64,000 nt of DNA from Chitinophagaceae bacterium. Its GTDB lineage: Bacteria > Bacteroidota > Bacteroidia > Chitinophagales > Chitinophagaceae. This document shows positions 9,248-45,420 of the stretch, in pieces; within the stretch, counting starts at the first letter, position 1, and each line of letters begins with the position of its first letter. A program made the position numbers and the translations under genes. The stretch covers positions 1-64,000 of the forward strand of contig JANWIJ010000013.1 in NCBI GenBank assembly GCA_025449935.1, read 5' to 3'. The notes under the pieces were generated by a model that worked only from the letters and a program-made list of their open reading frames with translations, did not search any database and was not told where the DNA came from.

Positions 9248-9255
9248 TATCTTTG
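9248..9255 (+). promoter_or_regulatory. Bacteroidota -7 box for folA
   Basis: TATCTTTG, exact TAnnTTTG match, immediately after the thyA stop and 24 bases before the folA ATG. It suggests folA has its own promoter besides read-through from thyA. Confidence 0.5.
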
Positions 9256-9279
9256 CTCCTTACTAATGAATACCTAATC

Positions 9280-9774: not shown

Positions 9775-9781
9775 TGATATT

Positions 9782-9789
9782 TATTTTTG
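9782..9789 (+). promoter_or_regulatory. -7 box 4 nt before the methyltransferase start
   Basis: TATTTTTG, exact TAnnTTTG match; only ATTC separates it from the ATG at 9794. If used, the transcript would be leaderless. Confidence 0.45.
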
Positions 9790-9793
9790 ATTC

Positions 9794-10594
9794 ATGTATT
9801 CCAAATGGCAGCTCGCCAGGAAATATCTTAATTATTACTTCAGCGCTTCCAGCCGTGATGGCCATGGGGTTCATTCCCCGTTTGTTTTTGATTTCATACA
9901 GAAAGTGTTAACTGATAAACACCTGTATCCAGCCTACAAAAGGGTGGAAGCTTTACGCTCCAAATTAAAAGATGACACCCGGATGATTACTGTGCAGGAT
10001 TATGGCGCTGGATCTGTGATTGACAAAAAAGACCAGCGCAGCCTGGCTTCTATTGCTAAAAATGCAGTTAAGCCAAAAAAATTCGGACAACTGCTTTTCA
10101 GGATGGCCCGGCATTACCAGCCCGCAGTTATACTGGAACTTGGCACGTCGCTGGGTATCACCACGTCCTATCTTTCCCTGGCAAGACCAACGGCGAGGAT
10201 AATAACGCTGGAAGGTGCCCGCTCCATAGCGGAAGTTGCCAGGAATAATTTTGAAAAGGTACTACCGCTCAAAAATATTTCTGTCGTGGAAGGAAATTTC
10301 GAAAACACACTGGCAGCTGTGCTTGAAAATGAAAAAGAAGTCGATATGGCTTTTATCGATGGTAATCACCGCCGGGAACCGACAGAAAGGTATTTTCAGC
10401 AATTACTCGCCAAAACTCATAATGAATCGATCCTGCTGTTTGATGATATTCACTGGAGCCGGGAAATGGAAGAAGCCTGGGAAACCATCAAATCCCATCC
10501 TTCAGTCCGCGGCAGTATTGATCTTTTCTTTACCGGGATCATCTTATTCCGGAAAGAATTCAAAGAGAAACGGCATTTCGTTATCCGGTTTTAA
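9794..10594 (+). CDS. Class I SAM-dependent methyltransferase
   Basis: 266 residues. The SAM-binding motif I is ILELGTSLGITTSYLS (about residues 114-129), followed by IITLEG (acidic residue for the ribose), VVEGNF and MAFIDGNHR, the order of a Rossmann-fold O-methyltransferase-like enzyme. The N-terminal ~90 residues, with GVHSPFVFDFI, form a helical extension. The substrate cannot be told from sequence. It sits between folA and the transhydrogenase genes. Confidence 0.85.
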   Translation: MYSKWQLARKYLNYYFSASSRDGHGVHSPFVFDFIQKVLTDKHLYPAYKRVEALRSKLKDDTRMITVQDYGAGSVIDKKDQRSLASIAKNAVKPKKFGQLLFRMARHYQPAVILELGTSLGITTSYLSLARPTARIITLEGARSIAEVARNNFEKVLPLKNISVVEGNFENTLAAVLENEKEVDMAFIDGNHRREPTERYFQQLLAKTHNESILLFDDIHWSREMEEAWETIKSHPSVRGSIDLFFTGIILFRKEFKEKRHFVIRF

Positions 10595-10642
10595 AAATCA
10601 GTATCTTCGGCACTATCTATAAAAAACCTATTCAAGCGATTT

Positions 10643-11752
10643 ATGACGATTGGCATTCTAAAAGAACCGGCCCATGAAACAAGAGTGTCACTGCTGGCTG
10701 AGGCCGTTGGCACACTCGTCAAAAAAGGAATTACTGTTGTTATAGAAGAAGGCGCCGGCGGGAAAGCATTCTGCAGTGACGCGGATTACAGGAGTGCCGG
10801 TGGACAGGTAATTAACCGGGCCGGTGTTTTATCCCAGGCAGATATTATTTTAAGCATTCATGAGCCTGCACCCGGTGAAATAGAACAGTTACGCACAAAA
10901 ATCCTGGTCGGAACCTATCACCCTTTATTTAATGTGGGCCTGATGAAGCAGTGGGCAGCGGCAGGCATAACATCCTTTTCGCTGGATATGCTTCCAAGGA
11001 CTACCCGGGCCCAGGCCATGGACGTGCTGAGTTCGCAGGCAAATATTGCAGGGTATAAAGCCGTATTAACGGCGGCCAACCTCTATCCCCGTTATTTTCC
11101 CATGTTTATGACTGCTGCGGGCAGCATCAAACCTGCAAAAGCACTGATACTCGGGGCAGGTGTAGCTGGGTTACAGGCTGTAGCAACGGCCAGGAGGCTG
11201 GGTGCTGTAGTGGAGGTTTTTGATACAAGACCTGCCGTAAAAGAAGAGGTGATAAGTCTCGGCGCAAAATTCATTGAAGTAGAAGGAGCAGCGGATGCCT
11301 CCAAAGCAGGGGGATACGCGGTGGAGCAACCGGAAGAATTCATGCAACGCCAGAAAGCTAAAATCGCAGAGAGTATCGCCAAAGCCGATATTGTGATTAC
11401 CACGGCGCAGATACCCGGTAAAAAAGCGCCCATACTTATTACTGAAGAAATGATAAAGGCGATGCGGTATGGTTCCGTGATCGTCGATTTGGCCGCAGCG
11501 ACGGGAGGCAACACCCCTATTACAAAGAACAATGAAACCGTTATATATAATGGCGTCAGCATTATCGGGAATTCAAATCTTTCTTCGACAATGCCTGCTG
11601 ATGCCAGCAGGATGTATGGAAAGAATATCCTGAATTTTTTGCAGCTGATTACCAGCAAAGAAGGAAACATCAACCTGAACTGGGAAGATGACCTCGTGAA
11701 AGGAAGTTGTATAACGCATGGAGGTGGAGTATTGCATGAGCGTGTAAAATAA
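10643..11752 (+). CDS. pntAA: NAD(P) transhydrogenase alpha subunit, part 1 (soluble NAD domain)
   Basis: 369 residues. Domain I of the proton-translocating transhydrogenase, related to alanine dehydrogenase: N-terminal EPAHETRVSL motif, NAD-binding Rossmann motif ALILGAGVAGLQAVATARRLGA (about residues 165-185). It binds NAD(H) and exchanges hydride with NADP(H) bound by PntB, driven by the proton gradient. First gene of the three-gene form (pntAA, pntAB, pntB) in which the E. coli alpha chain is split. A TATCTTCG near-match promoter box lies at 10602-10609. Gap of 76 bases to pntAB. Confidence 0.96.
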   Translation: MTIGILKEPAHETRVSLLAEAVGTLVKKGITVVIEEGAGGKAFCSDADYRSAGGQVINRAGVLSQADIILSIHEPAPGEIEQLRTKILVGTYHPLFNVGLMKQWAAAGITSFSLDMLPRTTRAQAMDVLSSQANIAGYKAVLTAANLYPRYFPMFMTAAGSIKPAKALILGAGVAGLQAVATARRLGAVVEVFDTRPAVKEEVISLGAKFIEVEGAADASKAGGYAVEQPEEFMQRQKAKIAESIAKADIVITTAQIPGKKAPILITEEMIKAMRYGSVIVDLAAATGGNTPITKNNETVIYNGVSIIGNSNLSSTMPADASRMYGKNILNFLQLITSKEGNINLNWEDDLVKGSCITHGGGVLHERVK

Positions 11753-11828
11753 TTTGAAAAGGAGAAAGGGGGAGGGGTAATAGCAAATTCAATATTTCCA
11801 GCTTGTATAATTTCAAAATATAGTTCGT

Positions 11829-12143
11829 ATGGATACACTTTTAAACTGGATAACGGCTAACCAGCAGATCATTTACATTGTTATCCTGATGATTTTTGTG
11901 GGTATTGAAGTGATTGGGCGTGTACCCAGCGTATTGCATACGCCATTGATGAGCGGTGCCAATGCTATTCACGGGGTAGTGATTATCGGGGCAATCATTG
12001 TGATGGGGAAAGCGGAGCATGATAATTACCTGGCATTGATACTCGGTTTCCTGGCCGTGATATTGGGGACATTGAACGTGGTGGGGGGCTTTGTTGTAAC
12101 CGACAGGATGCTGGAAATGTTTAAAAAGAAGAAAAAGAATTAA
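11829..12143 (+). CDS. pntAB: NAD(P) transhydrogenase alpha subunit, part 2 (membrane)
   Basis: 104 residues with three hydrophobic helices (about 12-32, 45-62, 69-90) and the GANAIHGVVIIGAI motif of transhydrogenase domain II. It forms part of the membrane proton channel together with PntB. Ends in a lysine-rich tail. 33 bases separate it from pntB. Confidence 0.95.
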   Translation: MDTLLNWITANQQIIYIVILMIFVGIEVIGRVPSVLHTPLMSGANAIHGVVIIGAIIVMGKAEHDNYLALILGFLAVILGTLNVVGGFVVTDRMLEMFKKKKKN

Positions 12144-12176
12144 GGTTTACAGGATTAAAAGATCAAGCGGTCAACT

Positions 12177-13646
12177 ATGGAATTCAACATACTTACACTT
12201 TGTTATTTAATCGGTTCCGTCACCTTTATTATTGGGTTGAAAATGCTGTCCAACCCGGCCAATGCCAGGCAGGGAAATCTCATCGCTGCGGGTGGGATGG
12301 TGATCGCGATCCTGGGAACTATTTTTTTGTACCGGGATGAGGCGGGTAACAAACTGCATAACCACGGCTGGATATTCGGAGGCATTATTATCGGGTCCAT
12401 TGTTGGCACACTCGCCGCCAGGAAGGTTAAAATGACCGCGATGCCAGAGATGGTGAGTATGTTCAATGGAATGGGCGGAGCCTGTGCCGCATTAATATCA
12501 GTTGTTGAGTTTAACCACCTGGTTAAAGAGGCTGCTTTAAATTCCGGGACAGGTGTTTTATATCCCCCCCTGAGTGATCTTGCAAACAATGACAGTAGCC
12601 TGGTGATGCCGGCTGGCCAGTTATTGATCATCCTGTTGGGGCTGATAATCGGTTCCGTTTCTTTTGCAGGCAGCATGATAGCCTGGGGAAAATTAAATGG
12701 AGGGATTAAAGATTTTTCATTCAAAGGCCAGCATATTTTCAATATCGTATTGTTGCTGGTTATTTTGGGATTGGCTGTTTTCCTGGTTGCGGAAACGCCT
12801 TCAGGCAGTCGTATTATCTTCTATATAATTTTTGCATTATCGTTACTGTATGGGGTATTCTTTGTCTTCCCGATCGGGGGAGCCGATATGCCGGTGGTCA
12901 TTTCTTTATTGAATTCTTTTACAGGAGTAGCGGCGGCCTGCGGTGGTTTCCTGTATGATAATAAAGTGATGCTGACCGGGGGTATCCTGGTGGGTGCAGC
13001 CGGAACATTGCTGACGATCCTGATGTGTAAAGCCATGAACCGTTCCCTCGCCAATGTACTGATCGGTTCGTTTGGCGGGGATAAAACCGGGGCAGGCAGT
13101 ACCAAACAACAGGGTGCCTACAAAGAAATTTCACTGAGTGACGCGGCGGTGGTGATGGCTTACGCCAATAAGGTTATCATCGTTCCGGGTTATGGACTGG
13201 CCGTGGCACAGGCGCAACACGCCTGTCATGACCTGGAGAAAATATTGAACGACAAAGGGGTGGATGTGCGGTATGCTATCCATCCAGTAGCCGGACGGAT
13301 GCCGGGTCATATGAATGTATTGCTGGCTGAAGCTGATGTGAGTTATGAGAAGCTGCAAGAGATGGAAGAAGCCAATGAAGAATTTCCCTCTACCGATGTT
13401 GTGCTTGTACTTGGTGCCAATGATGTGGTGAACCCGGCTGCCAAAACAGATCCCGCTTCTCCCATCTATGGGATGCCTATACTGGATGTTGAAATGGCCA
13501 AGCTGGTTATTGTAAACAAACGAAGTATGAAACCGGGTTACGCCGGGATTGAAAATGACCTTTTCTTCCAGAAAAAAACGTCCATGTTGTTCGGGGACGC
13601 TAAGAAAGTATTACAGGATTTAATCGGGGAAATAAAAAACCTTTAG
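12177..13646 (+). CDS. pntB: NAD(P) transhydrogenase beta subunit
   Basis: 489 residues: an N-terminal membrane region with about nine hydrophobic helices (residues 1-290) and a C-terminal NADP(H)-binding domain III (about 315-489) with the motif VIIVPGYGLAVAQAQH, followed by VRYAIHPVAGRMPGHMNVLLAEA and VLVLGANDVVNP. Together with PntAA/PntAB it reduces NADP+ with NADH at the cost of proton entry, supplying NADPH, for example to the folate reductase encoded upstream. The stop is 23 bases before the M28 peptidase ATG. Confidence 0.97.
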   Translation: MEFNILTLCYLIGSVTFIIGLKMLSNPANARQGNLIAAGGMVIAILGTIFLYRDEAGNKLHNHGWIFGGIIIGSIVGTLAARKVKMTAMPEMVSMFNGMGGACAALISVVEFNHLVKEAALNSGTGVLYPPLSDLANNDSSLVMPAGQLLIILLGLIIGSVSFAGSMIAWGKLNGGIKDFSFKGQHIFNIVLLLVILGLAVFLVAETPSGSRIIFYIIFALSLLYGVFFVFPIGGADMPVVISLLNSFTGVAAACGGFLYDNKVMLTGGILVGAAGTLLTILMCKAMNRSLANVLIGSFGGDKTGAGSTKQQGAYKEISLSDAAVVMAYANKVIIVPGYGLAVAQAQHACHDLEKILNDKGVDVRYAIHPVAGRMPGHMNVLLAEADVSYEKLQEMEEANEEFPSTDVVLVLGANDVVNPAAKTDPASPIYGMPILDVEMAKLVIVNKRSMKPGYAGIENDLFFQKKTSMLFGDAKKVLQDLIGEIKNL

Positions 13647-28810: not shown

Positions 28811-29698
28811 CTATTTTAGCCGCTGACTAACCACCAGTTCCTTGCTTCCTGCTGTATAGGTATAAAAACCTTCCCCGCTTTTTACACCCAGTTTACCGGC
28901 CGCAACCATGTTGGCGAGTAAGGGGCATGGTGCATACTTGGAGGTCCTGAAACCGTCCTGCAAAACTCTTAAAATAGCATAGCAAACATCGAGGCCAATA
29001 AAATCGGCAAGTTGAAGCGGCCCCATCGGGTGAGCCATGCCGAGTTTCATCACCGTATCTATTTCTTCCACGCCGGCCACCCCTTCATATAAACTGTAGA
29101 TGGCTTCGTTGATCATCGGCATTAATATACGGTTGGCAATAAAACCAGGATAGTCATTTACCACGCAGGGTATTTTGCCCAGCTGTTTGCTGAGTTCAAC
29201 AATTGTGTCTGTGACTTCTTTTTTGGTGGCATAGCCATTTATGATCTCTACCAGTTTCATCACCGGCACGGGATTCATAAAATGCATACCGATCACTTTC
29301 CCTGCCCTGCCTGTTACTGCGGCTATCTTAGTAATGGAAATACTCGATGTATTAGTAGCCAGGATGGTTTCTTTGGGGGCATATTTGTCCAGTTCTTCAA
29401 ATATCTGGAGTTTCAGTTCGATGTTTTCGGTAGCGGCTTCCACGACCAGCTCAGCATTCTTGACACCTTCGATCATATTGGACTCTATGCTGATATTGGC
29501 CAGGGTATTTTTTTTCTGCTCCTCGGTGATGGCAGCTTTGCTGATCTGCCTGTCCAGGTTTTTAGTGATCGTAGCCACCGCACGGTCAAGCTGTGCCAGT
29601 GAAATATCAACAATAGTCACTTTGAACCCGGCCTGTGCAAATACATGGGCAATGCCATTTCCCATGGTGCCTGCGCCGATAACGGATATATTATTCAT
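28811..29698 (-). CDS. 3-hydroxybutyryl-CoA dehydrogenase
   Basis: 295 residues, the length of single-domain-type Hbd/PaaH enzymes. N-terminal NAD-binding motif ISVIGAGTMGNGIAHVFAQAG, followed by the catalytic His in IGMHFMNPVPVMKLVE and the C-terminal helical dimer domain (GAHPMGPLQLADFIGLD-like). It oxidises 3-hydroxyacyl-CoA to the 3-ketoacyl form in fatty acid or amino acid breakdown. It could process the crotonyl-CoA-derived product of the glutaryl-CoA dehydrogenase at 44236, though the two are not adjacent. No partner thiolase is nearby. Confidence 0.95.
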   Translation of the reverse strand: MNNISVIGAGTMGNGIAHVFAQAGFKVTIVDISLAQLDRAVATITKNLDRQISKAAITEEQKKNTLANISIESNMIEGVKNAELVVEAATENIELKLQIFEELDKYAPKETILATNTSSISITKIAAVTGRAGKVIGMHFMNPVPVMKLVEIINGYATKKEVTDTIVELSKQLGKIPCVVNDYPGFIANRILMPMINEAIYSLYEGVAGVEEIDTVMKLGMAHPMGPLQLADFIGLDVCYAILRVLQDGFRTSKYAPCPLLANMVAAGKLGVKSGEGFYTYTAGSKELVVSQRLK

Positions 29699-33460: not shown

Positions 33461-34474
33461 TTATTCGAAGTAAGGGAAATTCTTATCGTTAAGTCCCAGC
33501 CATTTCTGGGCATTCCGGTACAGCAATTTTTTGGTTAGTTTTTTACTGAAACCCATTTTTTCAATCAGCCTGCCCGGTTTGTGCTCACCTAGTGGGAAGG
33601 GATAGTCGCTCCCGAGACAGACCGTGTCTTCGCTCATTACTTCCAACAAATAAGCGAATGCTTTCTTATCATGCACTAAACTGTCCACCCAAAATTTGCC
33701 GATATAATCCCTGGGGTTAATGGGATTGTCAACGGCAACCAGGTCCGGCCGGACTTTAAAACCATGCTCAATGCGGCCAATAGTTAACGGGAATGAGCCA
33801 CCCCCATGCGCAAAAGCCACTCTCAGCTTTGGAAATTTTTCAAAAATGCCGCCGAATATCATTGAGCAAATAGCCCGTGAAGTTTCAGCCGGCATGCCTA
33901 CCAGCCAGGGCAGCCAGTATTTTTCCATTTGTGTTTCGCCCATCATTTCCCAGGGATGGATAAATAATGCGCATCCGAGTTTTTCGGCGGCTTCATAAAA
34001 CGGGAAAAAAGAAGTATCAGAAAGATTTTTTCCATTGATATTGCTGCCGATTTCCAGCCCGGGCATCTTTAACTCTTTAATACAGCGTTCCATTTCCCTG
34101 GTGGCCAATTCAACATCCTGTAATGGAACTGTCCCCAACCCGATAAAATGATTGGGCTCCTTTCTCACGGTTTCTGCAATATGGTCATTGAAAAACCGGG
34201 AAGTTTGATAACCATCCTGCGGTTTCGCCCAATAATTGAACAATACCGGGATGGTGGAAAGCACCTGTACCGTGACTTCTGTTTCGTCCATTTCCTTTAA
34301 CCGGGCTTCCCGTTTGTAGGAATTTTCTGCTACCACACGAAACACTTTATCGCCTTTCATCATGCAGGCTTCGCAATTACGGTGTTCGAGGTGGATGAAT
34401 TCACCATAACCAAACTTCTCAGTCCAGTTTGGCATTTTTTCAGGCATGATATGCGTATGGATATCTATTTTCAT
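33461..34474 (-). CDS. 2-Amino-3-carboxymuconate-6-semialdehyde decarboxylase (ACMSD)
   Basis: 337 residues, amidohydrolase superfamily zinc enzyme. It starts MKIDIHTHIMPEK (zinc ligands His6 and His8), and has CALFIHPWEM (third His), FAHGGGSFPLTIGRIEHG and LGSDYPFPLGE (Asp ligand), the same blocks as the human ACMSD. It decarboxylates ACMS made by HAAO to 2-aminomuconate semialdehyde, which commits kynurenine carbon to breakdown instead of NAD synthesis. It is downstream of haaO on the same strand (61 bases), divergent from the rest of the kynurenine genes. Confidence 0.95.
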   Translation of the reverse strand: MKIDIHTHIMPEKMPNWTEKFGYGEFIHLEHRNCEACMMKGDKVFRVVAENSYKREARLKEMDETEVTVQVLSTIPVLFNYWAKPQDGYQTSRFFNDHIAETVRKEPNHFIGLGTVPLQDVELATREMERCIKELKMPGLEIGSNINGKNLSDTSFFPFYEAAEKLGCALFIHPWEMMGETQMEKYWLPWLVGMPAETSRAICSMIFGGIFEKFPKLRVAFAHGGGSFPLTIGRIEHGFKVRPDLVAVDNPINPRDYIGKFWVDSLVHDKKAFAYLLEVMSEDTVCLGSDYPFPLGEHKPGRLIEKMGFSKKLTKKLLYRNAQKWLGLNDKNFPYFE

Positions 34475-34535
34475 ATTGCTGGTTCTTGTTGCCGGCAGCA
34501 GGAAATGAAATTAACAGCCGGCAATTTTTATACAT

Positions 34536-35078
34536 TCATGATGCGGCCGGGGGTTTCACGGGTGGCTCCATCACCTCGCCACATTTTTTACAGGTCCTTA
34601 ATTCTGTACTTCCCCAGAACTTTTCCATTACAGGGGGTAATTGCTTTACAATATCTTTTACAAACAAAACATCCTCATGGAGTTTATTGCCGCAGTTCTC
34701 GCAAAACCAGAGAAAAGCATCTTTCTCCTCTTCCTCATCCTCCCTCACTTTCTCAATAACCAAACCAACGGTATTTGGTCCGCGCTGGGGCGAGTGCGGG
34801 GTTTTTGGGGGTAACAGGAACATATCCCCTTCATTGATGGGAATGGACCTTGGAACACCTCCATCAATGATCTTGAGTACAATGTTTCCTTCCACCTGGT
34901 AGTACAGTTCTTCACTTTCGTTATAGTGATAATCTTTCCGTGCATTGGGCCCGCCCACAACCATCACGATAAAATTCTCGGCATCCTTATACACGCATTG
35001 GTTGCCTACCGGTGGTTTCAGCAGGCCACGATTTTCATCGATCCATTTTTTCAGGTTAAAAGGAGCAGCAATAGCCAT
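34536..35078 (-). CDS. 3-Hydroxyanthranilate 3,4-dioxygenase
   Basis: 180 residues, cupin. Fe(II) ligands His51, Glu57 and His95 with Arg47 and Arg99 in the substrate site, the same numbers as in the Cupriavidus enzyme. C-terminal rubredoxin-like iron site Cys126-x2-Cys129 and Cys163-x2-Cys166 is complete. It opens the ring of 3-hydroxyanthranilate made by kynureninase. First gene of the minus-strand arm; 100 bases separate it from the divergent SDR gene, so promoters for both arms lie between 35079 and 35178. Confidence 0.97.
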   Translation of the reverse strand: MAIAAPFNLKKWIDENRGLLKPPVGNQCVYKDAENFIVMVVGGPNARKDYHYNESEELYYQVEGNIVLKIIDGGVPRSIPINEGDMFLLPPKTPHSPQRGPNTVGLVIEKVREDEEEEKDAFLWFCENCGNKLHEDVLFVKDIVKQLPPVMEKFWGSTELRTCKKCGEVMEPPVKPPAAS

Positions 35079-35165
35079 AGAGCAGATTTTAAAAAGATTA
35101 AAGTTTAAAAATTTTGGATTGTCAAACTCCGGACTTCCAGTGGGAAAAATTACAACTTTTTGCCG

Positions 35166-35173
35166 TAGGTTTG
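35166..35173 (+). promoter_or_regulatory. -7 box 5 nt before the SDR gene
   Basis: TAGGTTTG, exact TAnnTTTG match; ACTAT separates it from the ATG at 35179. It would start transcription of the plus-strand kynurenine arm. Confidence 0.5.
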
Positions 35174-35178
35174 ACTAT

Positions 35179-35964
35179 ATGAATCTTTCTCTGGAAGGAA
35201 AAAATGCCGTCATTTGCGGAAGTACACAGGGAATCGGGCTGGCCATAGCCGAAGAATTGGCCCTGCTCGGCGCCAACTGCACATTGATCGCAAGAAATGA
35301 AGCAGCACTAAAGGCAGCCGTACATAGTTTGGATATCGCGCTCCGGCAACAACACCATTATCTCGTGGCTGATTTCAGCAAGCCTGCTGAAGTAAAAGCC
35401 GCGATTGAAGGACATGTGTCCGGAACCCCGGTCCATATTCTCATCAATAATACCGGGGGTCCTGCAGCCGGTCCTATCATCGAAGCCTCAGAAGAAGCAT
35501 TTACAGATACGTTTAGCCAGCACCTGGTCTGTAATCATATTCTGGCCAAAGCGGTTGTTCCTTCCATGAAGAAGGAAGGTTTCGGGCGTATCATTAATAT
35601 TATTTCGACATCAGTTAAAATCCCGCTGAAGAACCTCGGCGTGTCCAACACCATCCGGGGTGCGGTGGCCAGCTGGGCTAAGAGCATGGCGAATGAACTG
35701 GGGCAGTATAACATTACCGTGAACAATGTGTTGCCGGGGTTTACTTCTACCCAGCGTTTATCAACACTGATTGAGAATATCGCTAAAAAGGGAAACACGG
35801 TTGTGGATATTGTGGAAAAGAATATGATGGAAGAAGTGCCCATGAAACGTTTTGCCGATGCTGCAGAGGTGGCAGCCGTCGCGGCTTTCCTGGCTTCACC
35901 GGCCGCTTCTTATATAAACGGGGTCAGCATACCGGTAGATGGCGGAAGAACGGGAAGTATTTAG
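35179..35964 (+). CDS. Atypical SDR family protein (lacks YxxxK) in the kynurenine cluster
   Basis: 261 residues. SDR Rossmann fold with nucleotide motif GSTQGIGLAIAEEL (TGxxxGIG variant), INNTGGP in place of NNAG, and C-terminal SYINGVSIPVDGGRTGS. The usual catalytic YxxxK is replaced: aligning KAAV to RGAV, Tyr becomes Ser156 and Lys becomes Arg160 (SNTIR). This SNxxR pattern fits the divergent 'BKR-like' SDR subgroup annotated as not matching the catalytic tetrad. ATG 35179 is chosen because the SDR fold starts there; a longer reading overlaps haaO. It heads the plus-strand arm. I infer a role in kynurenine catabolism from place only. Confidence 0.85.
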   Translation: MNLSLEGKNAVICGSTQGIGLAIAEELALLGANCTLIARNEAALKAAVHSLDIALRQQHHYLVADFSKPAEVKAAIEGHVSGTPVHILINNTGGPAAGPIIEASEEAFTDTFSQHLVCNHILAKAVVPSMKKEGFGRIINIISTSVKIPLKNLGVSNTIRGAVASWAKSMANELGQYNITVNNVLPGFTSTQRLSTLIENIAKKGNTVVDIVEKNMMEEVPMKRFADAAEVAAVAAFLASPAASYINGVSIPVDGGRTGSI

Positions 35965-36056
35965 TTAATTTCAATTCTACTGAAGCTGAACGCCTTTTTA
36001 AATTTGTTTCCAAATCAACGAGACAGAACTCTAAATAGACAATTTTCTGACTGACC

Positions 36057-36080
36057 AATTAACTAATTAACCAATTAACT
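36057..36080 (+). repeat. Three tandem copies of the octamer AATTAACY
   Basis: AATTAACT, AATTAACC, AATTAACT in direct succession at 36057-36080, in the 133-base gap between the SDR and aldehyde dehydrogenase genes. It could be a binding site or a slippage product; it overlaps the upstream edge of the dehydrogenase reading frame. Confidence 0.55.
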
Positions 36081-36097
36081 TACAAATCCCATATCAT

Positions 36098-37531
36098 CTG
36101 GAGAATTACATTGGCGGAAATCTTATTGGTCCGTTAAGTGGAAATTTTATTGAGAATATCAACCCGGCAACTGGAGTGATGTCAGGCCAGGTTCCGGACA
36201 GCAATGAGAAAGACGTAAATATCGCTGTTGAAGCGGCTAAGAAAGCATTTACATCATGGAGTGTAACACCTGCTGAAGAACGCTTCAGAATTCTCAACCG
36301 GATTGCGGAACTGATTGATGCCAGCCTGGATGACCTGGCCCTGGCTGAAACCAACGATAATGGCAAGCCACTTTGGTTAAGCAGGAAGGTGGATATTCCA
36401 AGAGCGTCGGCAAACTTCCGTTTTTTTGCCACTGGAATCATGCACTTTGCCACGGAGAGCCATTCGATGGAAGACAAGGCTGTGAATTATACCTTACGCC
36501 AGCCTCTTGGTATTGTCGGTTGCATCTCTCCCTGGAATCTGCCTCTTTATTTATTCACCTGGAAGATCGCACCGGCACTGGCCGCCGGTAATTGTGTCAT
36601 TGCCAAGCCTTCAGAAGTTACACCGGTTACTGCCTTCCTGCTTTCAAAGATTTGCCAGGAGGCTGGTTTGCCGCCCGGCGTGCTGAATATTGTGCACGGT
36701 ACCGGGAATATAACCGGGGAGGCGATCGTTAAACACCCTGGGATTAAAGCCATTTCTTTTACCGGCAGTACAAGAGCCGGGGAAAGGATTGCTGCTATTG
36801 CTGCACCCAAATTCAAAAAACTTTCCCTGGAGCTTGGCGGAAAAAACCCCAATATCATTTTTGCGGATTGTGATTGGGAAAATATGATGCGAACTTCCAT
36901 TCAATCTTCTTTTTCCAACCAGGGAGAAATATGTTTATGCGGCAGCCGCATCCTGGTGGAAGAAAGTATATATGAAAAATTCAAAACTGAATTCGTTGAA
37001 AGGACAAAAGCATTAACCGTGGCCGACCCGCTGGAAGAAAATACCAGGCAGGGGGCAATCGTCAGTAAAGTACATTTTGATAAGATCATGCGCTGTATTG
37101 ATACAGCCAGGCAGGAGGGAGGAAGGATCCTGTGCGGCGGGCATTCGGTCAGGCCCGAAGGACGATGTGCCAATGGATATTTCATTCAACCCACCGTTAT
37201 TGAAGGGTTGGGTCCCGAATGTCATACCAACCAGGAAGAAGTTTTTGGGCCCGTTGTTACGTTGCAATCTTTCAGGACTGAAGATGAAGCGCTGCACCTG
37301 GCAAATGCTACACAGTATGGCTTGTCGGCAACTATCTGGACGCAGGATATATCAAAAGCAAACCGCGTGGCAGCAAAAGTTGAAAGTGGGATCATCTGGA
37401 TCAATTGCTGGCTGCTTCGGGACTTGCGGACTCCGTTCGGGGGAATGAAAAGCAGCGGGGTGGGCAGGGAAGGCGGCTGGGAGGCATTGCGGTTTTTTAC
37501 AGAAGCAAAGAATATTTGTGTACAATTATAA
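36098..37531 (+). CDS. 2-Aminomuconate 6-semialdehyde dehydrogenase (ALDH family); start codon non-standard
   Basis: About 477 residues if started at CTG 36098. The frame is open from 36071; homology to aldehyde dehydrogenases begins at once (LENYIGGNLIGP, INPATG), but no ATG, GTG or TTG occurs before GTG 36176/ATG 36179, which would cut off the first ~27 residues. Catalytic Cys about 279 (GEICLCGSRI), Glu about 245 (LELGGKNP), and FTGSTRAG for NAD binding are present. It would oxidise 2-aminomuconate semialdehyde from ACMSD. RidA follows after two bases. Either a rare start (CTG, ATC or ATT) is used, or the shorter protein is made. Confidence 0.85.
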   Translation: MENYIGGNLIGPLSGNFIENINPATGVMSGQVPDSNEKDVNIAVEAAKKAFTSWSVTPAEERFRILNRIAELIDASLDDLALAETNDNGKPLWLSRKVDIPRASANFRFFATGIMHFATESHSMEDKAVNYTLRQPLGIVGCISPWNLPLYLFTWKIAPALAAGNCVIAKPSEVTPVTAFLLSKICQEAGLPPGVLNIVHGTGNITGEAIVKHPGIKAISFTGSTRAGERIAAIAAPKFKKLSLELGGKNPNIIFADCDWENMMRTSIQSSFSNQGEICLCGSRILVEESIYEKFKTEFVERTKALTVADPLEENTRQGAIVSKVHFDKIMRCIDTARQEGGRILCGGHSVRPEGRCANGYFIQPTVIEGLGPECHTNQEEVFGPVVTLQSFRTEDEALHLANATQYGLSATIWTQDISKANRVAAKVESGIIWINCWLLRDLRTPFGGMKSSGVGREGGWEALRFFTEAKNICVQL

Positions 37532-37533
37532 TT

Positions 37534-37947
37534 ATGCCGGACATTATTCATACTGACAATGCTTCCAAACCACTGGGTGCTTACCCGCATGCCAGGAAGG
37601 TGGGGAATCTTTTATTCCTGTCGGGTATCGGCCCCCGCAACCCAAAGGATAATTCAATTCCCGGGCTGGAACTGGATGGCGCGGGGAATATTGTGAAATA
37701 TGATATTGAAGCGGAATGTCACTCCGTATTTGCCAACGTGAAAGCTGTGCTCGAAGCCAGTGGCAGCAGTTGGGATAAGATCATTGATGTGACCGTATTC
37801 CTGACCAATATGAAAAAAGATTTTCCTGTATATAATAAAGTATATGCAGAATATTTTACACCGGTGCAGGCTTGCCGGACGACCGTAGAAGTAAAGAGCC
37901 TTCCAACTCCAATTGCGATTGAATTAAAAGTAATAGCAACGGTCTGA
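37534..37947 (+). CDS. RidA-family 2-aminomuconate deaminase
   Basis: 137 residues, YjgF/RidA fold: SGIGPRNP near the N-terminus and a C-terminal ACRTTVEVKSLPTPIAIELKVIA strand with the conserved Arg of CRTTVEV. RidA homologues in nba/amn clusters are 2-aminomuconate deaminases; the place directly after the semialdehyde dehydrogenase supports this. Product would be 4-oxalocrotonate plus ammonia. ATG at 37534, two bases after the ALDH stop, so translational coupling is likely. kynU begins 37 bases later. Confidence 0.9.
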   Translation: MPDIIHTDNASKPLGAYPHARKVGNLLFLSGIGPRNPKDNSIPGLELDGAGNIVKYDIEAECHSVFANVKAVLEASGSSWDKIIDVTVFLTNMKKDFPVYNKVYAEYFTPVQACRTTVEVKSLPTPIAIELKVIATV

Positions 37948-37984
37948 ACCATGATTGATGGCATTTTAATGAGTAAGCGGAAAT

Positions 37985-39259
37985 ATGGAATATAGAAATA
38001 CGCCTGACTTTGCAAGAGAATTAGACGCCAGGGATTTACTTAAGGGTTACCGGAAGAAGTTTTTCATTCCGCAGCACGATGGTAAAGATGCTGTCTATTT
38101 CACCGGTAACTCTCTCGGGCTGCAGGCCAGGACAACTTCCCGATATGTACAGCAGGAATTGGATGATTGGGCACGGTTGGGGGTGGAAGGGCATTTTCTG
38201 GCTAAAAATCCCTGGCTGCCTTATCATGAAATTTTTCCCGGCCAGTTGTCAAAGATCGTTGGGTGTCATGAGAATGAAGTGGTGGTCATGAACCAGCTAA
38301 CGGTGAACCTTCATTTGCTGATGGTGAGCTTTTATCGCCCAAACAAGCAGCGCTATAAAATAATTTGTGAGGCCAAAGCATTTCCTTCTGACCAGTATGC
38401 ATTTGAATCCCAGGCCAGGTATCATGGTTTTGCTCCCGCGGACGCTGTTATTGAAGTGCATCCCCGGGATGGCGGGCATACACTGAGAACGGAAGATATC
38501 CTGTCCACCATCAAACAGCATGGTGACAGCATAGCAGTCGTATTATTTGGCGGTGTTAATTATTACACCGGGCAATTGTTTGATATGAAATCCATTACGG
38601 CAGCAGCACATGCAGTGGGCGCCTATGCCGGTTTTGACCTGGCCCATGCAGCCGGTAACGTGGAATTGCACCTGCATGAATGGGATGTAGATTTTGCCTG
38701 CTGGTGTTCTTATAAATACCTGAATTCAGGACCCGGGGGTGTAGCCGGCGTATACATTCATGAAAGACATTCTGTCAATAAGGAGTTGCCAAGATTTGCA
38801 GGCTGGTGGGGTCATACCAAAGAAACCCGTTTTCAAATGGAAAAAGGTTTTGAACCGATACCAACTGCGGAAGGCTGGCAATTGAGTAATGCCCCTGTAT
38901 TGTCCATGGCGGCCCATAAAGCCTCGCTTGACATTTTTGAGGAAGCAGGAATAAGTAACTTGCATGAAAAGCGAAAACGATTATCGGGTTACCTGCACTT
39001 TATTTTGGATGATATCAATGGCCGCCAGGAAAAAAAAGTGGTGGAGGTCATCACTCCTGCCAATGAAAGTGAAAGAGGGTGCCAGGTATCTATGCTGATG
39101 CTGAAAAGGGGAAAAGAAATATTTACTGAATTATCAAAGCAGGGGGTCATTGCTGACTGGCGCGAACCCAATGTGATCCGGGTGGCCCCTGTGCCTTTGT
39201 ATAATTCTTTTGAAGATGTCTGGCGGTTTGGACAAATTATTGAAAGTACTTTGCAATAA
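37985..39259 (+). CDS. kynU: Kynureninase
   Basis: 424 residues, PLP fold type I. The PLP lysine is Lys244 in SYKYLNSGPGG; FTGNSLGLQ at the start, FDLAHAAGNVELHLHEWDVDFACW and GWWGHTKETRFQM are all kynureninase blocks. It cleaves 3-hydroxykynurenine to 3-hydroxyanthranilate and alanine, the substrate for HAAO encoded on the other arm. Part of the plus-strand arm between the RidA and small membrane protein genes. Confidence 0.98.
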   Translation: MEYRNTPDFARELDARDLLKGYRKKFFIPQHDGKDAVYFTGNSLGLQARTTSRYVQQELDDWARLGVEGHFLAKNPWLPYHEIFPGQLSKIVGCHENEVVVMNQLTVNLHLLMVSFYRPNKQRYKIICEAKAFPSDQYAFESQARYHGFAPADAVIEVHPRDGGHTLRTEDILSTIKQHGDSIAVVLFGGVNYYTGQLFDMKSITAAAHAVGAYAGFDLAHAAGNVELHLHEWDVDFACWCSYKYLNSGPGGVAGVYIHERHSVNKELPRFAGWWGHTKETRFQMEKGFEPIPTAEGWQLSNAPVLSMAAHKASLDIFEEAGISNLHEKRKRLSGYLHFILDDINGRQEKKVVEVITPANESERGCQVSMLMLKRGKEIFTELSKQGVIADWREPNVIRVAPVPLYNSFEDVWRFGQIIESTLQ

Positions 39260-39280
39260 TAACCAGGTCAAAGAAAAGCA

Positions 39281-39697
39281 ATGATTGAAAAATACCTTTG
39301 GATCAGCGGCTCCTCCATTTTTTTAATCCTGGCAACCATTCATTTGTACTATACTTTTTTCACCAATAAATTTTCGGTTCGCGACCGGAACACTGAACAA
39401 ATGATGAAGAAAGCCTACCCGGTCCTGACAAAACAGACCACCATGTGGAAAGCCTGGCTGGGATTTAATGCCAGTCATAGTGCCGGGGGTATATTTTTTG
39501 GCGCGATCAATTTGGTTTTTGCATGGAGTTATTTTGATTTATTGAAAAGCTCAGCCCTGTTGCTCCTGTTTACCTGTTTGACCAGTTTTTTTTATCTTTT
39601 TCTGGGATTTAAGTATTGGTTTGATATACCCCGTACCGGGATTTTAATTTCGTCTGGCTGTTTTGCGGCGGCCACGGTAATAATCTTTATGAAATGA
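39281..39697 (+). CDS. Small four-helix integral membrane protein in the kynurenine operon
   Basis: 138 residues with four hydrophobic helices (about 5-27, 66-86, 90-114, 118-137) and a conserved-looking NASHSAGGIFFGAINL at the start of the second. I do not recognise a function; similar small four-helix proteins occur in Bacteroidota and Leptospira. It overlaps kmo by four bases (39694-39697), so the two are translationally coupled. Possible roles: membrane partner of the monooxygenase or a small transporter, both speculative. Confidence 0.8.
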   Translation: MIEKYLWISGSSIFLILATIHLYYTFFTNKFSVRDRNTEQMMKKAYPVLTKQTTMWKAWLGFNASHSAGGIFFGAINLVFAWSYFDLLKSSALLLLFTCLTSFFYLFLGFKYWFDIPRTGILISSGCFAAATVIIFMK

Positions 39698-41046
39698 AAA
39701 AGAATGTTACGATAATCGGTGCCGGGCTGGTGGGATCGTTGCTTTCCATTTACCTGTCCAAAAGAGGCTATAAGGTGAACCTGTTTGAGCGGCGGGGCGA
39801 TATGAGGAAAGAAACCATGAGCGCAGGCCGCTCCATTAACCTGGCATTAAGTGACCGGGGACTGCTGGCATTGGAGAAGGTGGGCCTGGCAGAAGAAATA
39901 AGAAAGATCTCCATTCCAATGCATGGCCGTTATATACACAACCTGGACGGGACCACGGCCTTTCAACGCTATGGAAAGGAAGGACAATATATTAATTCGG
40001 TTTCAAGGGCTACACTGAACATGAAACTGATGGACCTTGCGGAACAGCATGGGGCGGGAATTTATTTCAATCATAAATGCACGGCGATTGACTGGAAGAA
40101 GAATATTATCACTTTCGAACTTCCCGGCTCTGAACTGCAGACTCAACCCGCCGAACTTATTTTTGGCTCCGACGGAGCTTTCTCGGCTGCCAGGTTGCAA
40201 CACCAGTTACAGCATGATAAATTCGACTACCAGCAACATTATATTGACTGCGGGTATAAAGAGCTAACCATTCCTCCGACCCCTTCCGGCGACTTTGCGA
40301 TGGAAGTAAACGCACTGCATATCTGGCCCAGGAAGGATTATATGCTGATTGCCTTACCGAACCTTGACAGGACTTTTACCTGCACCCTGTTTTTCCCATT
40401 TGAAGGGCGGGCATCCTTTTCAAACCTGGATACTAAAGAGAGCGTGAAAGGTTTTTTCGAGAAAACATTTCCCGATGCGGTTCCGCTGATGCCAAACTAT
40501 ATACAGGAGTTCTTTTCCAATCCTGCATCATCGTTGGTTACAGTTAAATGTTACCCGTGGGTACGGGAGGATAAGTTCGCATTGATCGGTGATGCGGCTC
40601 ACGCCATCGTCCCGTTTTTTGGACAGGGTATGAATTGCGGGTTCGAAGATTGCCGGGTACTCGATGAATTGATTGAACAGCATGCAGACGACTGGAATAC
40701 CATACTGGGGAAATACCAGGCCACCCGTAAACCTGACGCAGATGCTATAGCCGACCTGGCTGTCAATAATTTTATTGAAATGCGGGAAAAAACAGCTGAC
40801 CCGAAATTCTTATTGCAAAAGAAAATTGAAGCAAGGCTTCATGAAAAGTACCCGGGCAAATGGATCCCCGCTTACTCGCAGGTCACGTTTAGTCCTTATA
40901 TCAGGTATTCAGAAGCATTGCAGCGTGGGCAGAGGCAGGAGAGCATCATGCAGGAAGTAATGCAATTGCCCGATATTGAACAGATCTGGCAGGCGGAAGA
41001 AATTGAACACTGGATCATCTCGAAAGTTCAAAACAGGCCAATCTGA
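39694..41046 (+). CDS. kmo: Kynurenine 3-monooxygenase
   Basis: 450 residues. FAD-binding motif VTIIGAGLVGSLLSIYLSKRG, then AGRSINLALSDRG, the NADPH/FAD GSDGAFSA motif, and ALIGDAAHAIVPFFGQGMNCGFEDC (second FAD motif). It hydroxylates kynurenine to 3-hydroxykynurenine with O2 and NADPH. The C-terminal end has no membrane helix, unlike the eukaryotic enzyme. Genes for tryptophan dioxygenase and kynurenine formamidase, which would feed it, are not in the window. Confidence 0.97.
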   Translation: MKKNVTIIGAGLVGSLLSIYLSKRGYKVNLFERRGDMRKETMSAGRSINLALSDRGLLALEKVGLAEEIRKISIPMHGRYIHNLDGTTAFQRYGKEGQYINSVSRATLNMKLMDLAEQHGAGIYFNHKCTAIDWKKNIITFELPGSELQTQPAELIFGSDGAFSAARLQHQLQHDKFDYQQHYIDCGYKELTIPPTPSGDFAMEVNALHIWPRKDYMLIALPNLDRTFTCTLFFPFEGRASFSNLDTKESVKGFFEKTFPDAVPLMPNYIQEFFSNPASSLVTVKCYPWVREDKFALIGDAAHAIVPFFGQGMNCGFEDCRVLDELIEQHADDWNTILGKYQATRKPDADAIADLAVNNFIEMREKTADPKFLLQKKIEARLHEKYPGKWIPAYSQVTFSPYIRYSEALQRGQRQESIMQEVMQLPDIEQIWQAEEIEHWIISKVQNRPI

Positions 41047-44235: not shown

Positions 44236-45420
44236 ATGGCGGCCCGTACAGACCTTTTTACCAGTCCTGACTATTTTGGCGTAGATGAATTATTAACCGA
44301 AGAACACAAACTCATCCGTGAATCTGTCCGCAGTTATGTGAAGAAAGAGGTTTCACCCATCATTGAAGAATATGCCCAAAAGGCCGAATTTCCTGAACAG
44401 ATCGTAAAACAATTGGGTGACCTGGGATGCTTTGGCCCTACCATTCCAGTACAATATGGTGGCGGCGGTCTGGATTATATTTCATATGGATTAATGATGC
44501 AGGAACTGGAAAGGGGAGATAGCGGAGTCCGTTCTACTGCATCAGTCCAGGGTTCCCTGGTCATGTTTCCTATCTATCAATACGGGAGCGAAGAACAGCG
44601 GAAAAAGTACTTGCCTAAACTGGCAAGCGGGGAATGGTTGGGTTGTTTTGGCTTAACAGAACCCAATCACGGCAGCGATCCGAGCAGCATGCTTACCAAT
44701 TATAAAGATGCCGGAGATCATGTACTACTGAATGGTTCCAAAATGTGGATCAGCAATGCGCCGTTTTCACAGGTGGCGGTGGTTTGGGCCAAAGATGAAT
44801 CCGGCGAAATTAAGGGGCTGATTGTGGAAAGAGGAATGGAGGGATTCAGTACACCCACAACCCATGGAAAATGGAGCCTCCGGGCCTCGGCAACCGGTGA
44901 GTTGGTCTTTGATAATGTGAAAGTACCTAAAGAAAATATTTTCCCGAATGTAAAAGGATTAAAGGGGCCCCTGGGTTGCCTCACCAAAGCGCGATATGGT
45001 ATTGCGTGGGGTACAATAGGAGCCGCGATGGATTGTTATGATACCGCGCTGCGTTATTCCAAGGAAAGAGAGCAGTTCGGCAGGCCGATCGGAGGCTTCC
45101 AGTTGCAACAAAAGAAACTGGCGGAAATGATTACGGAGATCACCAAGGCACAATTATTGAACTGGCGGTTGGGTGTGCTGATGAGTGAAGGAAAAGCCTC
45201 GCCCCAGCAAGTGAGCATGGCTAAAAGAAATGCCTGCGAAGTTGCTGCCAATATTTGCAGGGATGCACGCCAGATACTTGGAGGAATGGGAATCACCGGC
45301 GAGTATTCGGTGATGCGCCACATGATGAACCTGGAGAGCGTGATTACTTATGAAGGTACACATGATATCCATTTGCTGATAACGGGGATGGATGTAACGG
45401 GCTTTAATGCATTTAAATAA
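44236..45420 (+). CDS. Glutaryl-CoA dehydrogenase-type acyl-CoA dehydrogenase
   Basis: 394 residues. Acyl-CoA dehydrogenase fold. EPNHGSDPSSM and the catalytic Glu373 in ITYEGTHDIHLLITG are the forms found in glutaryl-CoA dehydrogenases, so oxidative decarboxylation of glutaryl-CoA to crotonyl-CoA is the best call. Glutaryl-CoA arises from lysine and, in animals, tryptophan via 2-oxoadipate, which fits the kynurenine cluster 3 kb away. ATG 44236 is chosen because the family starts there and a promoter box precedes it; an in-frame upstream ATG at 44167 is in front of the box. Confidence 0.9.
   Translation: MAARTDLFTSPDYFGVDELLTEEHKLIRESVRSYVKKEVSPIIEEYAQKAEFPEQIVKQLGDLGCFGPTIPVQYGGGGLDYISYGLMMQELERGDSGVRSTASVQGSLVMFPIYQYGSEEQRKKYLPKLASGEWLGCFGLTEPNHGSDPSSMLTNYKDAGDHVLLNGSKMWISNAPFSQVAVVWAKDESGEIKGLIVERGMEGFSTPTTHGKWSLRASATGELVFDNVKVPKENIFPNVKGLKGPLGCLTKARYGIAWGTIGAAMDCYDTALRYSKEREQFGRPIGGFQLQQKKLAEMITEITKAQLLNWRLGVLMSEGKASPQQVSMAKRNACEVAANICRDARQILGGMGITGEYSVMRHMMNLESVITYEGTHDIHLLITGMDVTGFNAFK

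What the first reader, a model, noticed from the sequence alone, without database searches (positions are those of the whole stretch)
33461..41046. Kynurenine breakdown cluster with an unexplained step after 2-aminomuconate
ACMSD, HAAO, aminomuconate semialdehyde dehydrogenase, RidA-type deaminase, kynureninase and kynurenine monooxygenase are all present, so kynurenine can reach 2-aminomuconate and 4-oxalocrotonate. The bacterial meta-cleavage genes that normally follow (oxalocrotonate decarboxylase, hydratase, aldolase) are absent here. Instead the cluster contains an atypical SDR, and a glutaryl-CoA dehydrogenase and a 3-hydroxybutyryl-CoA dehydrogenase are in the same window. This suggests a mammalian-like exit: reduction to 2-oxoadipate, then glutaryl-CoA and crotonyl-CoA. 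The reductase for that step is the missing piece, and the SDR is a candidate.
Basis: partly seen in the sequence, partly recalled or inferred. Interest (0 to 1): 0.6.

Follow-up and report, generated by a model that had tools for sequence, protein, structure and literature searches.

The report
Candidate enzyme for missing tryptophan-breakdown step
A tryptophan-degradation gene cluster in a Bacteroidota bacterium carries an unusual reductase-like gene that tracks the pathway across two phyla and is absent from the one sampled pathway genome found with the usual follow-on enzymes, so it is a good, still untested, candidate for the step leading to 2-oxoadipate.

Summary
The cluster is real and correctly read: ACMSD, HAAO, SDR, AMSDH, 2-aminomuconate-deaminase-like RidA, kynureninase, a small protein and KMO at 33461-41046. 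The genome has no 4-hydroxy-2-oxovalerate aldolase and no homologue of a known oxalocrotonate decarboxylase/hydratase pair. In 247 Bacteroidota genomes 57 have HAAO: 35 also have this SDR and all 35 have AMSDH; of the 22 without the SDR one has AMSDH (G085). One HAAO+ACMSD genome without the SDR (G128) has a 2-oxo-3-hexenedioate-decarboxylase-like gene beside HAAO plus hydratase, acetaldehyde dehydrogenase and aldolase genes. In 274 Gammaproteobacteria 5 carry the SDR, 4 beside AMSDH, one in a complete cluster. The SDR has lost the Tyr and Lys of carbonyl-reducing SDRs; its best Foldseek match is AerF, a NADPH-dependent double-bond reductase, with BacG/YwfH close behind. Two of its arguments weaken: glutaryl-CoA dehydrogenase is in 64 of 64 genomes tested, so uninformative; and the SDR persists without the pathway in a Chitinophaga/Niastella/Pedobacter clade, so it probably has a second role. 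No biochemistry was possible.

The parts
33461..34474 (-). [quoted passage not shown]
   Evidence: PF04909; closest solved structures 2wm1/4ofc named ACMSD, E 8e-129
34536..35078 (-). HAAO (3-hydroxyanthranilate 3,4-dioxygenase)
   Evidence: NF009763 and TIGR03037 over cut-off; PF06052
35179..35964 (+). atypical SDR, proposed 4-oxalocrotonate / 2-aminomuconate ene-reductase
   Evidence: PF13561/PF00106; S143, S156, R160 invariant in 40 rows and no Tyr/Lys; model pLDDT 95, best Foldseek matches AerF; co-occurrence
36074..37531 (+). 2-aminomuconate-6-semialdehyde dehydrogenase (AMSDH); apparent start codon ATT
   Evidence: PF00171; best solved relative 7bzv, named 2-aminomuconic 6-semialdehyde dehydrogenase, E 3e-131; start compared with kin
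37534..37947 (+). RidA-type 2-aminomuconate deaminase
   Evidence: PF01042; best solved relative 6izh, named 2-aminomuconate deaminase; start read from the ORF (the scans used 37528)
37985..39259 (+). kynureninase
   Evidence: TIGR01814 over cut-off, 462 bits
39281..39697 (+). LIC_13387-family small protein (looks membrane-spanning by eye), role unknown
   Evidence: NF047765 over cut-off; not matched in the other clusters searched
39694..41046 (+). kynurenine 3-monooxygenase-like FAD monooxygenase
   Evidence: PF01494; same gene in kindred clusters
44236..45420 (+). glutaryl-CoA dehydrogenase (possible downstream step; present in every genome tested)
   Evidence: closest to solved GCDH entries; 64 of 64 genomes
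28811..29698 (-). 3-hydroxybutyryl-CoA dehydrogenase (possible downstream step, general metabolism)
   Evidence: NF004474 over cut-off; PF02737, PF00725

Best explanation
The cluster takes kynurenine to 2-aminomuconate (KMO, kynureninase, HAAO, ACMSD, AMSDH), and the RidA-type enzyme deaminates this to 4-oxalocrotonate (2-oxohex-3-enedioate). The atypical SDR then delivers a hydride from NADPH to C4 of the conjugated 2-oxo-3-ene system; the enolate is held by the invariant Ser143, Ser156 and Arg160, which stand where ordinary SDRs have Ser-Tyr-Lys, and is protonated at C3 to give 2-oxoadipate. A general 2-oxoacid dehydrogenase makes glutaryl-CoA, and glutaryl-CoA dehydrogenase leads to crotonyl-CoA and acetyl-CoA, as in mammals. 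Shown here: the genes, the missing alternative exit, the co-distribution, the replacement in one genome, the residue changes and the fold. Inferred: substrate, cofactor, chemistry and flux. Whether the SDR acts before or after deamination is open.
For: (1) No aldolase and no match to G128's decarboxylase-like gene in the window's genome; its 3 FAA_hydrolase genes sit in other contexts. (2) Of 57 HAAO genomes in a 247-genome sample, 35 have the SDR at 325 bits or more and all 35 have AMSDH; of the 22 without it, 1 has AMSDH. ACMSD of the window's type is in 29 of 64 genomes searched, 27 of them with the SDR. In 11 of the 35 the SDR lies on another contig than HAAO (10) or 0.33 Mb away (G043). 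(3) G128, with HAAO and ACMSD but no such SDR, has beside HAAO a gene whose best NCBIfam match is 2-oxo-3-hexenedioate decarboxylase (257 bits, under the 351 cut-off), the enzyme that acts on the very compound proposed for the SDR, and on another contig a RidA-type gene, a 2-oxopent-4-enoate-hydratase-like gene (320 bits, cut-off 409), and acetaldehyde dehydrogenase and 4-hydroxy-2-oxovalerate aldolase, both over cut-off. (4) In Gammaproteobacteria 5 of 274 genomes carry the SDR; 4 have it beside AMSDH, one within a full KMO-KYNU-ACMSD-HAAO-RidA-AMSDH-SDR cluster; none of the 5 has the aldolase. (5) Best Foldseek matches are AerF (37% identity, TM 0.94) and, at rank 11, YwfH/BacG (33%). [quoted passage not shown] BacG turns epoxy-3E-H2HPP into epoxy-4S-H4HPP (PMC9147277). 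That both substrates are conjugated 2-oxo acids reduced at C4 is recalled chemistry.
Against: The SDR is kept without HAAO in 7 of 42 carriers, and none of those 7 has ACMSD or AMSDH by the thresholds used. Of 50 further carriers, all picked from the 60 of 80 loci with no HAAO near the SDR, 26 lack HAAO. G085 has ACMSD, HAAO, AMSDH and RidA but neither this SDR nor the aldolase nor the decarboxylase-like gene. Of the three invariant residues AerF shares only Ser156. 33-37% identity to double-bond reductases does not fix a substrate, and ordinary carbonyl-reducing SDRs align with almost the same Z, AerF ranking eighth there. The 325-bit line was drawn after seeing the scores (next lower 296.5) on a profile built from cluster members; only the ten best first-look candidates of a genome were scored in that search for most genomes; and the genomes are related, so the Fisher values overstate the certainty. 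Some assemblies are fragmented, so a few of the 11 unlinked pairs could be linked across a gap. The 2-oxoadipate dehydrogenase step was not tested.
Confidence: 0.6

Rival explanations
1. The SDR is a general reductase of conjugated 2-oxo acids (or another conjugated metabolite) that the kynurenine branch recruited; the pathway role is real but secondary, and its older role persists in Chitinophaga, Niastella and Pedobacter.
For: 26 of 50 further carriers without HAAO near the SDR lack HAAO altogether, mostly in one clade (27 of 33 HAAO-less tree rows); the SDR is intact beside kynureninase in Niastella, beside tryptophan dioxygenase in Chitinophaga pinensis, and in unrelated neighbourhoods in Pedobacter and Runella.
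Against: Outside that clade 63 of 69 SDR rows are labelled as from HAAO genomes, 3 of those labels assumed, so the pathway association is the common state in this sample; no alternative substrate is suggested by a shared neighbour in the loci looked at.
Confidence: 0.25
2. The SDR acts earlier in the branch, on 2-aminomuconate semialdehyde or as a helper of AMSDH (for example protecting or recycling an unstable intermediate), and the exit from 4-oxalocrotonate uses an unrecognised enzyme elsewhere.
For: AMSDH is often the direct neighbour, also in Gammaproteobacteria; the SDR tracks AMSDH more closely than window-type ACMSD.
Against: Loss of Tyr and Lys argues against carbonyl chemistry; no other exit gene was seen, and the one sampled HAAO genome with a recognised exit set lacks this SDR.
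Confidence: 0.1
3. The SDR is an ordinary FabG-like passenger gene, near the pathway by synteny only.
For: It sits in many unrelated neighbourhoods: 48 of 80 loci have no HAAO, ACMSD, AMSDH or kynureninase in the DNA held, some of it short; two of the 48 have tryptophan dioxygenase.
Against: Co-occurrence holds in 11 of 35 genomes without adjacency in the assembly and across two phyla; it lacks the FabG catalytic Tyr and Lys; 14 other SDRs of the same wider family show no HAAO or ACMSD nearby.
Confidence: 0.05

Closest known systems
AerF (Microcystis aeruginosa, aeruginosin biosynthesis; PDB 6jh7, 6jha, 6jhb)
   Same: SDR fold, 37% identity, best Foldseek match; Ser in place of the catalytic Tyr; [quoted passage not shown] a structure with bound 4-hydroxyphenylpyruvate, a 2-oxo acid, exists (6jhb title)
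   Different: Biosynthetic; Gly and Asn where the window's SDR has Ser143 and Arg160; different gene neighbourhood
BacG/YwfH (Bacillus subtilis, bacilysin biosynthesis; PDB 3u49, 3u4c, 3u4d)
   Same: SDR fold, 33% identity, Foldseek rank 11; converts epoxy-3E-H2HPP to epoxy-4S-H4HPP (PMC9147277 passage)
   Different: Biosynthetic, cyclic substrate; its catalytic residues were not compared here (one search did not print its alignment)
Burkholderia SDRs of unknown function (5va8, 5vps, 5idx)
   Same: Among the top profile matches; share Ser, Ser and Arg at the three invariant positions
   Different: No function given in the entry titles; about 31% identity
Mammalian 2-aminomuconate to 2-oxoadipate step ('oxalocrotonate reductase')
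   Same: The same conversion is proposed; the enzyme is named in the figure 4 legend of PMC12899273
   Different: I know of no assigned gene; the human proteome was not searched
Bacterial 2-aminophenol / kynurenine meta pathway (amn/nba/dmp genes)
   Same: Same steps down to 4-oxalocrotonate (ACMSD, AMSDH, deaminase; pathway recalled)
   Different: No decarboxylase, hydratase or aldolase found

Membership tests
Classical short-chain dehydrogenase/reductase | Rossmann fold and GxxxGIG nucleotide motif | tested here: met
   GSTQGIG, PF00106/PF13561; model pLDDT 95, VIA-align Z up to 36.7
Classical short-chain dehydrogenase/reductase | catalytic Ser-Tyr-Lys (YxxxK) | tested here: not met
   S143 kept; Ser (S156) stands for Tyr and Arg (R160) for Lys, invariant in 40 aligned relatives; register against FabG set by eye
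AerF/BacG-type C=C reductases | nearest characterised relatives in sequence and fold | tested here: met
   Foldseek ranks 1, 2, 4, 10, 11 and 17 are AerF or YwfH; ranks 3 and 5-9 are uncharacterised Burkholderia SDRs. By VIA-align Z, L-sorbose reductase ranks level with them
AerF/BacG-type C=C reductases | same catalytic residues as AerF | tested here: inconclusive
   Ser156 shared; Ser143 and Arg160 not
AerF/BacG-type C=C reductases | NADPH-dependent reduction of a conjugated double bond | not testable with these tools
   needs an assay; Arg39 after strand 2, invariant in 24 cluster SDRs, suggests NADPH (inference)
ACMSD/AMSDH branch of the kynurenine pathway | HAAO, ACMSD, AMSDH and deaminase together | tested here: met
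Canonical meta-cleavage lower pathway | 4-oxalocrotonate decarboxylase, 2-oxopent-4-enoate hydratase, 4-hydroxy-2-oxovalerate aldolase | tested here: not met
   no match in G000 to PF07836 or, at 1e-5, to G128's decarboxylase-like gene; 3 PF01557 genes in other contexts
Glutaryl-CoA exit as in mammals | glutaryl-CoA dehydrogenase of the decarboxylating type | tested here: met
   by similarity only: 426 bits to 1sir against 251 to 3mpi, which I recall as non-decarboxylating
Glutaryl-CoA exit as in mammals | 2-oxoadipate dehydrogenase activity | not tested
   no search for the E1 component was made

The most novel reading that the evidence does not exclude
This SDR family is the bacterial gene for the orphan oxalocrotonate/2-aminomuconate reductase, giving Bacteroidota and some Gammaproteobacteria a mammal-like glutarate exit from tryptophan by Tyr/Lys-less SDR chemistry of the AerF/BacG kind, in place of meta-cleavage.
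Probability: 0.58. Interest if true: 0.75.

Novelty: new variant of a known kind. Interest (0 to 1): 0.63.

Why it matters
The step from 2-aminomuconate to 2-oxoadipate is part of the accepted tryptophan route in mammals, yet in the open-access library searched five names for its reductase turn up in one paper, in a figure legend, with no gene in the passages seen. A bacterial candidate gene, with natural contrasts (genomes with the SDR, one with the meta-pathway set instead, one with neither), makes the step testable with one protein and one knock-out. It would also extend Tyr/Lys-less SDR ene-reductases from peptide biosynthesis to catabolism and correct pathway predictions for many Bacteroidota.

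Tried and rejected
GCDH as evidence for the exit: rejected, since it is in 64 of 64 genomes. GCDH and the 3-hydroxybutyryl-CoA dehydrogenase near the SDR also occur around the SDR of HAAO-less Flavihumibacter (L146), so in this family it looks like plain synteny.

The three FAA_hydrolase genes of the genome as hidden decarboxylase/hydratase: rejected from neighbours read by eye (a flavin-reductase-like gene; peptidyl-tRNA hydrolase; a gluconate-permease-like and a gluconolactonase-like gene); none matched G128's gene at 1e-5. Two of the three were scanned against NCBIfam: best matches HpaG C-terminal (90 bits, cut-off 276) and GguC (35 bits, cut-off 340), neither over cut-off. The third (L002) was scanned against Pfam only.

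Aldolase-family hits in SDR carriers G258 (HAAO and AMSDH present) and G281 (no HAAO) as exceptions: each lies between an epimerase-type gene and an acetaldehyde-dehydrogenase-like fragment, in one case with an aminotransferase-like gene, on about 3.2 kb and without a decarboxylase/hydratase gene there. I read them as surface-sugar genes, by inference; G258 remains a possible counter-example. The other aldolase genome of the phylum sample, G058, has no HAAO.

H115 as a catalytic residue: rejected, because the SDRs of G212, G204, G220 and G043 lack it although these genomes have ACMSD and AMSDH.

A query cut to show the YwfH alignment did not print it. The careful tree did not finish; the quick tree is reported. 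No docking was done. No viral contigs, phage, plasmid or E. coli search was made. Literature: searched an open-access library only.

Rows dropped or assumed: in the tree, 8 of the 80 genome-contig loci were left out beforehand, most on short contigs, and the HAAO label of 3 rows (L201, L211, L212) was assumed from their clusters. The 50 genomes were chosen from the 60 of 80 loci with no HAAO in the DNA held; 10 were not tested. HAAO counts use E below 1e-46; 17 weaker cupin-like genomes's 74 were dropped. ACMSD counts leave out 3 genomes with 29-30% matches.

Full report
OBSERVATION. Matches to solved structures fix identities more tightly than the family models: ACMSD is nearest to entries named ACMSD (E 8e-129), two of the three best matches of the aldehyde dehydrogenase are named 2-aminomuconate semialdehyde dehydrogenase, the RidA-type protein is nearest to an entry named 2-aminomuconate deaminase, though a UPF0076 protein scores nearly the same, and the acyl-CoA dehydrogenase at 44236 is nearest to glutaryl-CoA dehydrogenases. 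HAAO and kynureninase pass their NCBIfam cut-offs, and so does the 3-hydroxybutyryl-CoA dehydrogenase at 28811. KMO is assigned by family (FAD_binding_3) and context only. The window lies in a 3.5 Mb, 118-contig assembly estimated 100% complete.

IS THE USUAL EXIT REALLY MISSING? Yes, in the assembly as held. DmpG_comm, the mark of 4-hydroxy-2-oxovalerate aldolase, is in 2 of 247 Bacteroidota genomes and not in this one. The genome has three FAA_hydrolase genes; their neighbours place them elsewhere, and no gene in it matches the decarboxylase-like gene of G128 at 1e-5.

WHO CARRIES THE SDR? A profile of 24 cluster SDRs (A1) was searched in the same 247 genomes (for most genomes only the ten best first-look candidates were scored). 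Scores fall into a high group (42 genomes, 325 bits or more) and a lower one (296.5 and below). HAAO at E below 1e-46 is in 57 of 247. The table is: SDR and HAAO 35; SDR only 7; HAAO only 22; neither 183. For the 57 HAAO genomes plus the 7 SDR-only ones I searched ACMSD, AMSDH and GCDH. AMSDH (E up to 1e-150) is in 36 of 64: all 35 genomes with SDR and HAAO, and G085. Window-type ACMSD (50% identity or more) is in 29 of 64, 27 of them with the SDR; the exceptions are G085 and G128. Seven genomes of family f5 with the SDR (Flavobacteriaceae, judged from their kin in the tree) have a divergent ACMSD-like amidohydrolase (26-30% to the window's) beside HAAO; the best solved relatives of the one tested are also ACMSDs (E 1e-23). 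G192 has SDR, HAAO and AMSDH but no ACMSD match. The other 20 HAAO genomes without the SDR (22 less G085 and G128) have no AMSDH; 17 are in f5 and 3 in f8, and the 3 in f8 have HAAO, kynureninase and KMO side by side, as for NAD synthesis (that reading is inference). One of the 20, G053, has a distant 29% amidohydrolase. GCDH is in 64 of 64, so it carries no weight. Fisher values are but ignore kinship; within-family contrasts among the 64 agree in f5 (7 genomes with both AMSDH and SDR, 17 with neither) and f8 (3 with both, 3 with neither), and disagree in f1 (3 with both, 4 with the SDR only).

LINKAGE. In 24 of the 35 genomes the SDR lies within about 10 kb of HAAO. In 11 it does not: 10 have it on another contig and G043 has it 0.33 Mb away. 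Some of these contigs end close by, so a few pairs could be linked across a gap, but in G017 the SDR is deep inside a 1.4 Mb contig.

THE NATURAL REPLACEMENT. G128 is the only one of the 57 HAAO genomes with the aldolase. Its best SDR scores 260 bits, on another contig. Beside its HAAO lies a gene (L044 10392-11180) whose best NCBIfam match is 2-oxo-3-hexenedioate decarboxylase (257 bits; cut-off 351), and a second contig holds in a row a RidA-type gene, a gene best matching 2-oxopent-4-enoate hydratase (320 bits; cut-off 409), acetaldehyde dehydrogenase and 4-hydroxy-2-oxovalerate aldolase, the last two over cut-off (L129). 2-oxo-3-hexenedioate is 4-oxalocrotonate, so the position used by the SDR in many relatives is held there by the enzyme type that removes the same compound. 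None of the other 63 genomes has that decarboxylase-like gene except for one 28.7-bit match in G030. G085 is the unexplained case: ACMSD, HAAO, AMSDH and RidA, and neither exit.

ANOTHER PHYLUM. Marinicella meishanensis (Gammaproteobacteria) led to its class: in 274 genomes, itself included, 5 carry the SDR at E up to 1e-85. In 4 of the 5 it is beside AMSDH (gaps of about 10 to 810 bp), and in G477 it closes a complete KMO-KYNU-ACMSD-HAAO-RidA-AMSDH-SDR cluster; in G444 it stands alone in 20 kb. None of the 5 has the aldolase. HAAO and AMSDH were not tallied over all 274.

AGAINST AN EXCLUSIVE ROLE. Of the best 80 SDR loci in named genomes (more existed), 48 have no HAAO, ACMSD, AMSDH or kynureninase in the DNA held (up to 10 kb each side, less on short contigs); two of the 48 have tryptophan dioxygenase. 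Of the 60 loci without HAAO in the DNA held I tested 50 genomes: 24 have HAAO elsewhere and 26 do not; AMSDH is in 25 of the 50, of which 23 also have HAAO. Completeness is not told for these 50, so some absences may be gaps, but isolates of Chitinophaga, Niastella and Pedobacter are among the 26. In a quick tree of 128 SDRs, 27 of the 33 HAAO-less rows fall in one 45-row clade (support 88) of mainly Chitinophagaceae and Sphingobacteriaceae, which also holds the window and, at its base, Marinicella; outside it 63 of 69 rows are labelled HAAO, 3 of these labels assumed. In Niastella the SDR sits between a glycerophosphodiesterase-like gene and kynureninase, in Chitinophaga pinensis beside tryptophan dioxygenase (PF03301), and in Pedobacter, Runella and other Chitinophaga in unrelated surroundings. 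So it either does something else there too, or acts on a related compound.

THE PROTEIN. Where ordinary SDRs have Ser-Tyr-Lys this family has Ser143-Ser156-Arg160, invariant in 40 aligned relatives, within a motif close to NIISTSVKxPxxGLGVSNTIRGAVASW. The model has mean pLDDT 95. Foldseek ranks AerF first and second (37% identity), uncharacterised Burkholderia SDRs next, and YwfH/BacG eleventh; VIA-align gives nearly tied Z for many SDRs (36.7 down to 34.0 over 50 entries, Burkholderia 5vps first, AerF eighth), so the fold alone does not choose. [quoted passage not shown] BacG converts epoxy-3E-H2HPP to epoxy-4S-H4HPP (PMC9147277, passages seen); that this is hydride addition at C4 of a conjugated 2-oxo acid is recalled. 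4-Oxalocrotonate is likewise a 2-oxo-3-ene acid. AerF shares only Ser156 of the three residues; Burkholderia 5va8 shares all three.

MECHANISM AND LIKELIHOOD. I hold at 0.6 that the SDR reduces 4-oxalocrotonate (or 2-aminomuconate) to 2-oxoadipate. That it belongs to the AMSDH branch in most carriers outside the Chitinophaga-Pedobacter clade is, I think, much safer. Substrate, cofactor and flux are inferred. The 2-oxoadipate dehydrogenase step was not tested.

WHAT IS IN PRINT. PMC12899273 (passages seen) lists 'oxalocrotonate reductase' and '2-oxoadipate dehydrogenase' as steps in a figure legend. PMC7842363 (passages seen) states that 2-oxo-3-hexenedioate may be reduced to 2-oxoadipate or decarboxylated, in Aspergillus, and a figure legend there mentions an SDR among syntenic genes. 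The passages seen of PMC13151070 and PMC10143591 say that 2-aminomuconate or its semialdehyde leads to glutaryl-CoA and name no reductase. Five names for such a reductase occur in one paper of the library. I found no report of this SDR in the pathway in the listings, in an open-access library only.

VERDICT. Observation confirmed; interpretation partly supported, strengthened in its main point and weakened in two of its arguments.

Noticed in passing
window 36071-36176: The AMSDH frame is open from 36071 but has no ATG/GTG/TTG before 36176; kin L135 and L150 have ATG at the matching place, the window has ATT (36074). Either a rare ATT start or a changed base.
   Followed up: partly
window 39281-39697: LIC_13387-family small protein between kynureninase and KMO, overlapping the KMO start; not matched in the other clusters searched.
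   Followed up: no
L044 (G128) 8597-11180 and L129 (G128) 6530-10036: A Bacteroidota genome with HAAO and ACMSD that has the ordinary meta-cleavage exit, rare in the phylum (aldolase in 2 of 247 genomes).
   Followed up: yes
L042 (G085) 2756-13637: Kynurenine cluster with ACMSD, HAAO, AMSDH, RidA and a tryptophan dioxygenase (PF03301), but neither the SDR nor the aldolase: exit unknown.
   Followed up: partly
L203 (Chitinophaga pinensis) 10001-11946: The SDR directly precedes a tryptophan 2,3-dioxygenase gene (PF03301) in a genome where no HAAO was found.
   Followed up: partly
L035 (G107) 8407-9498: f5 clusters have a divergent ACMSD-like amidohydrolase (about 26% identity to the window's ACMSD) in the ACMSD position.
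   Followed up: partly
L035 (G107) 12494-12883: Unknown 129-residue ORF between AMSDH and the RidA-type gene in an f5 cluster.
   Followed up: no
L224 (G477): Complete kynurenine cluster with the SDR in a gammaproteobacterial genome, suggesting transfer between phyla.
   Followed up: partly
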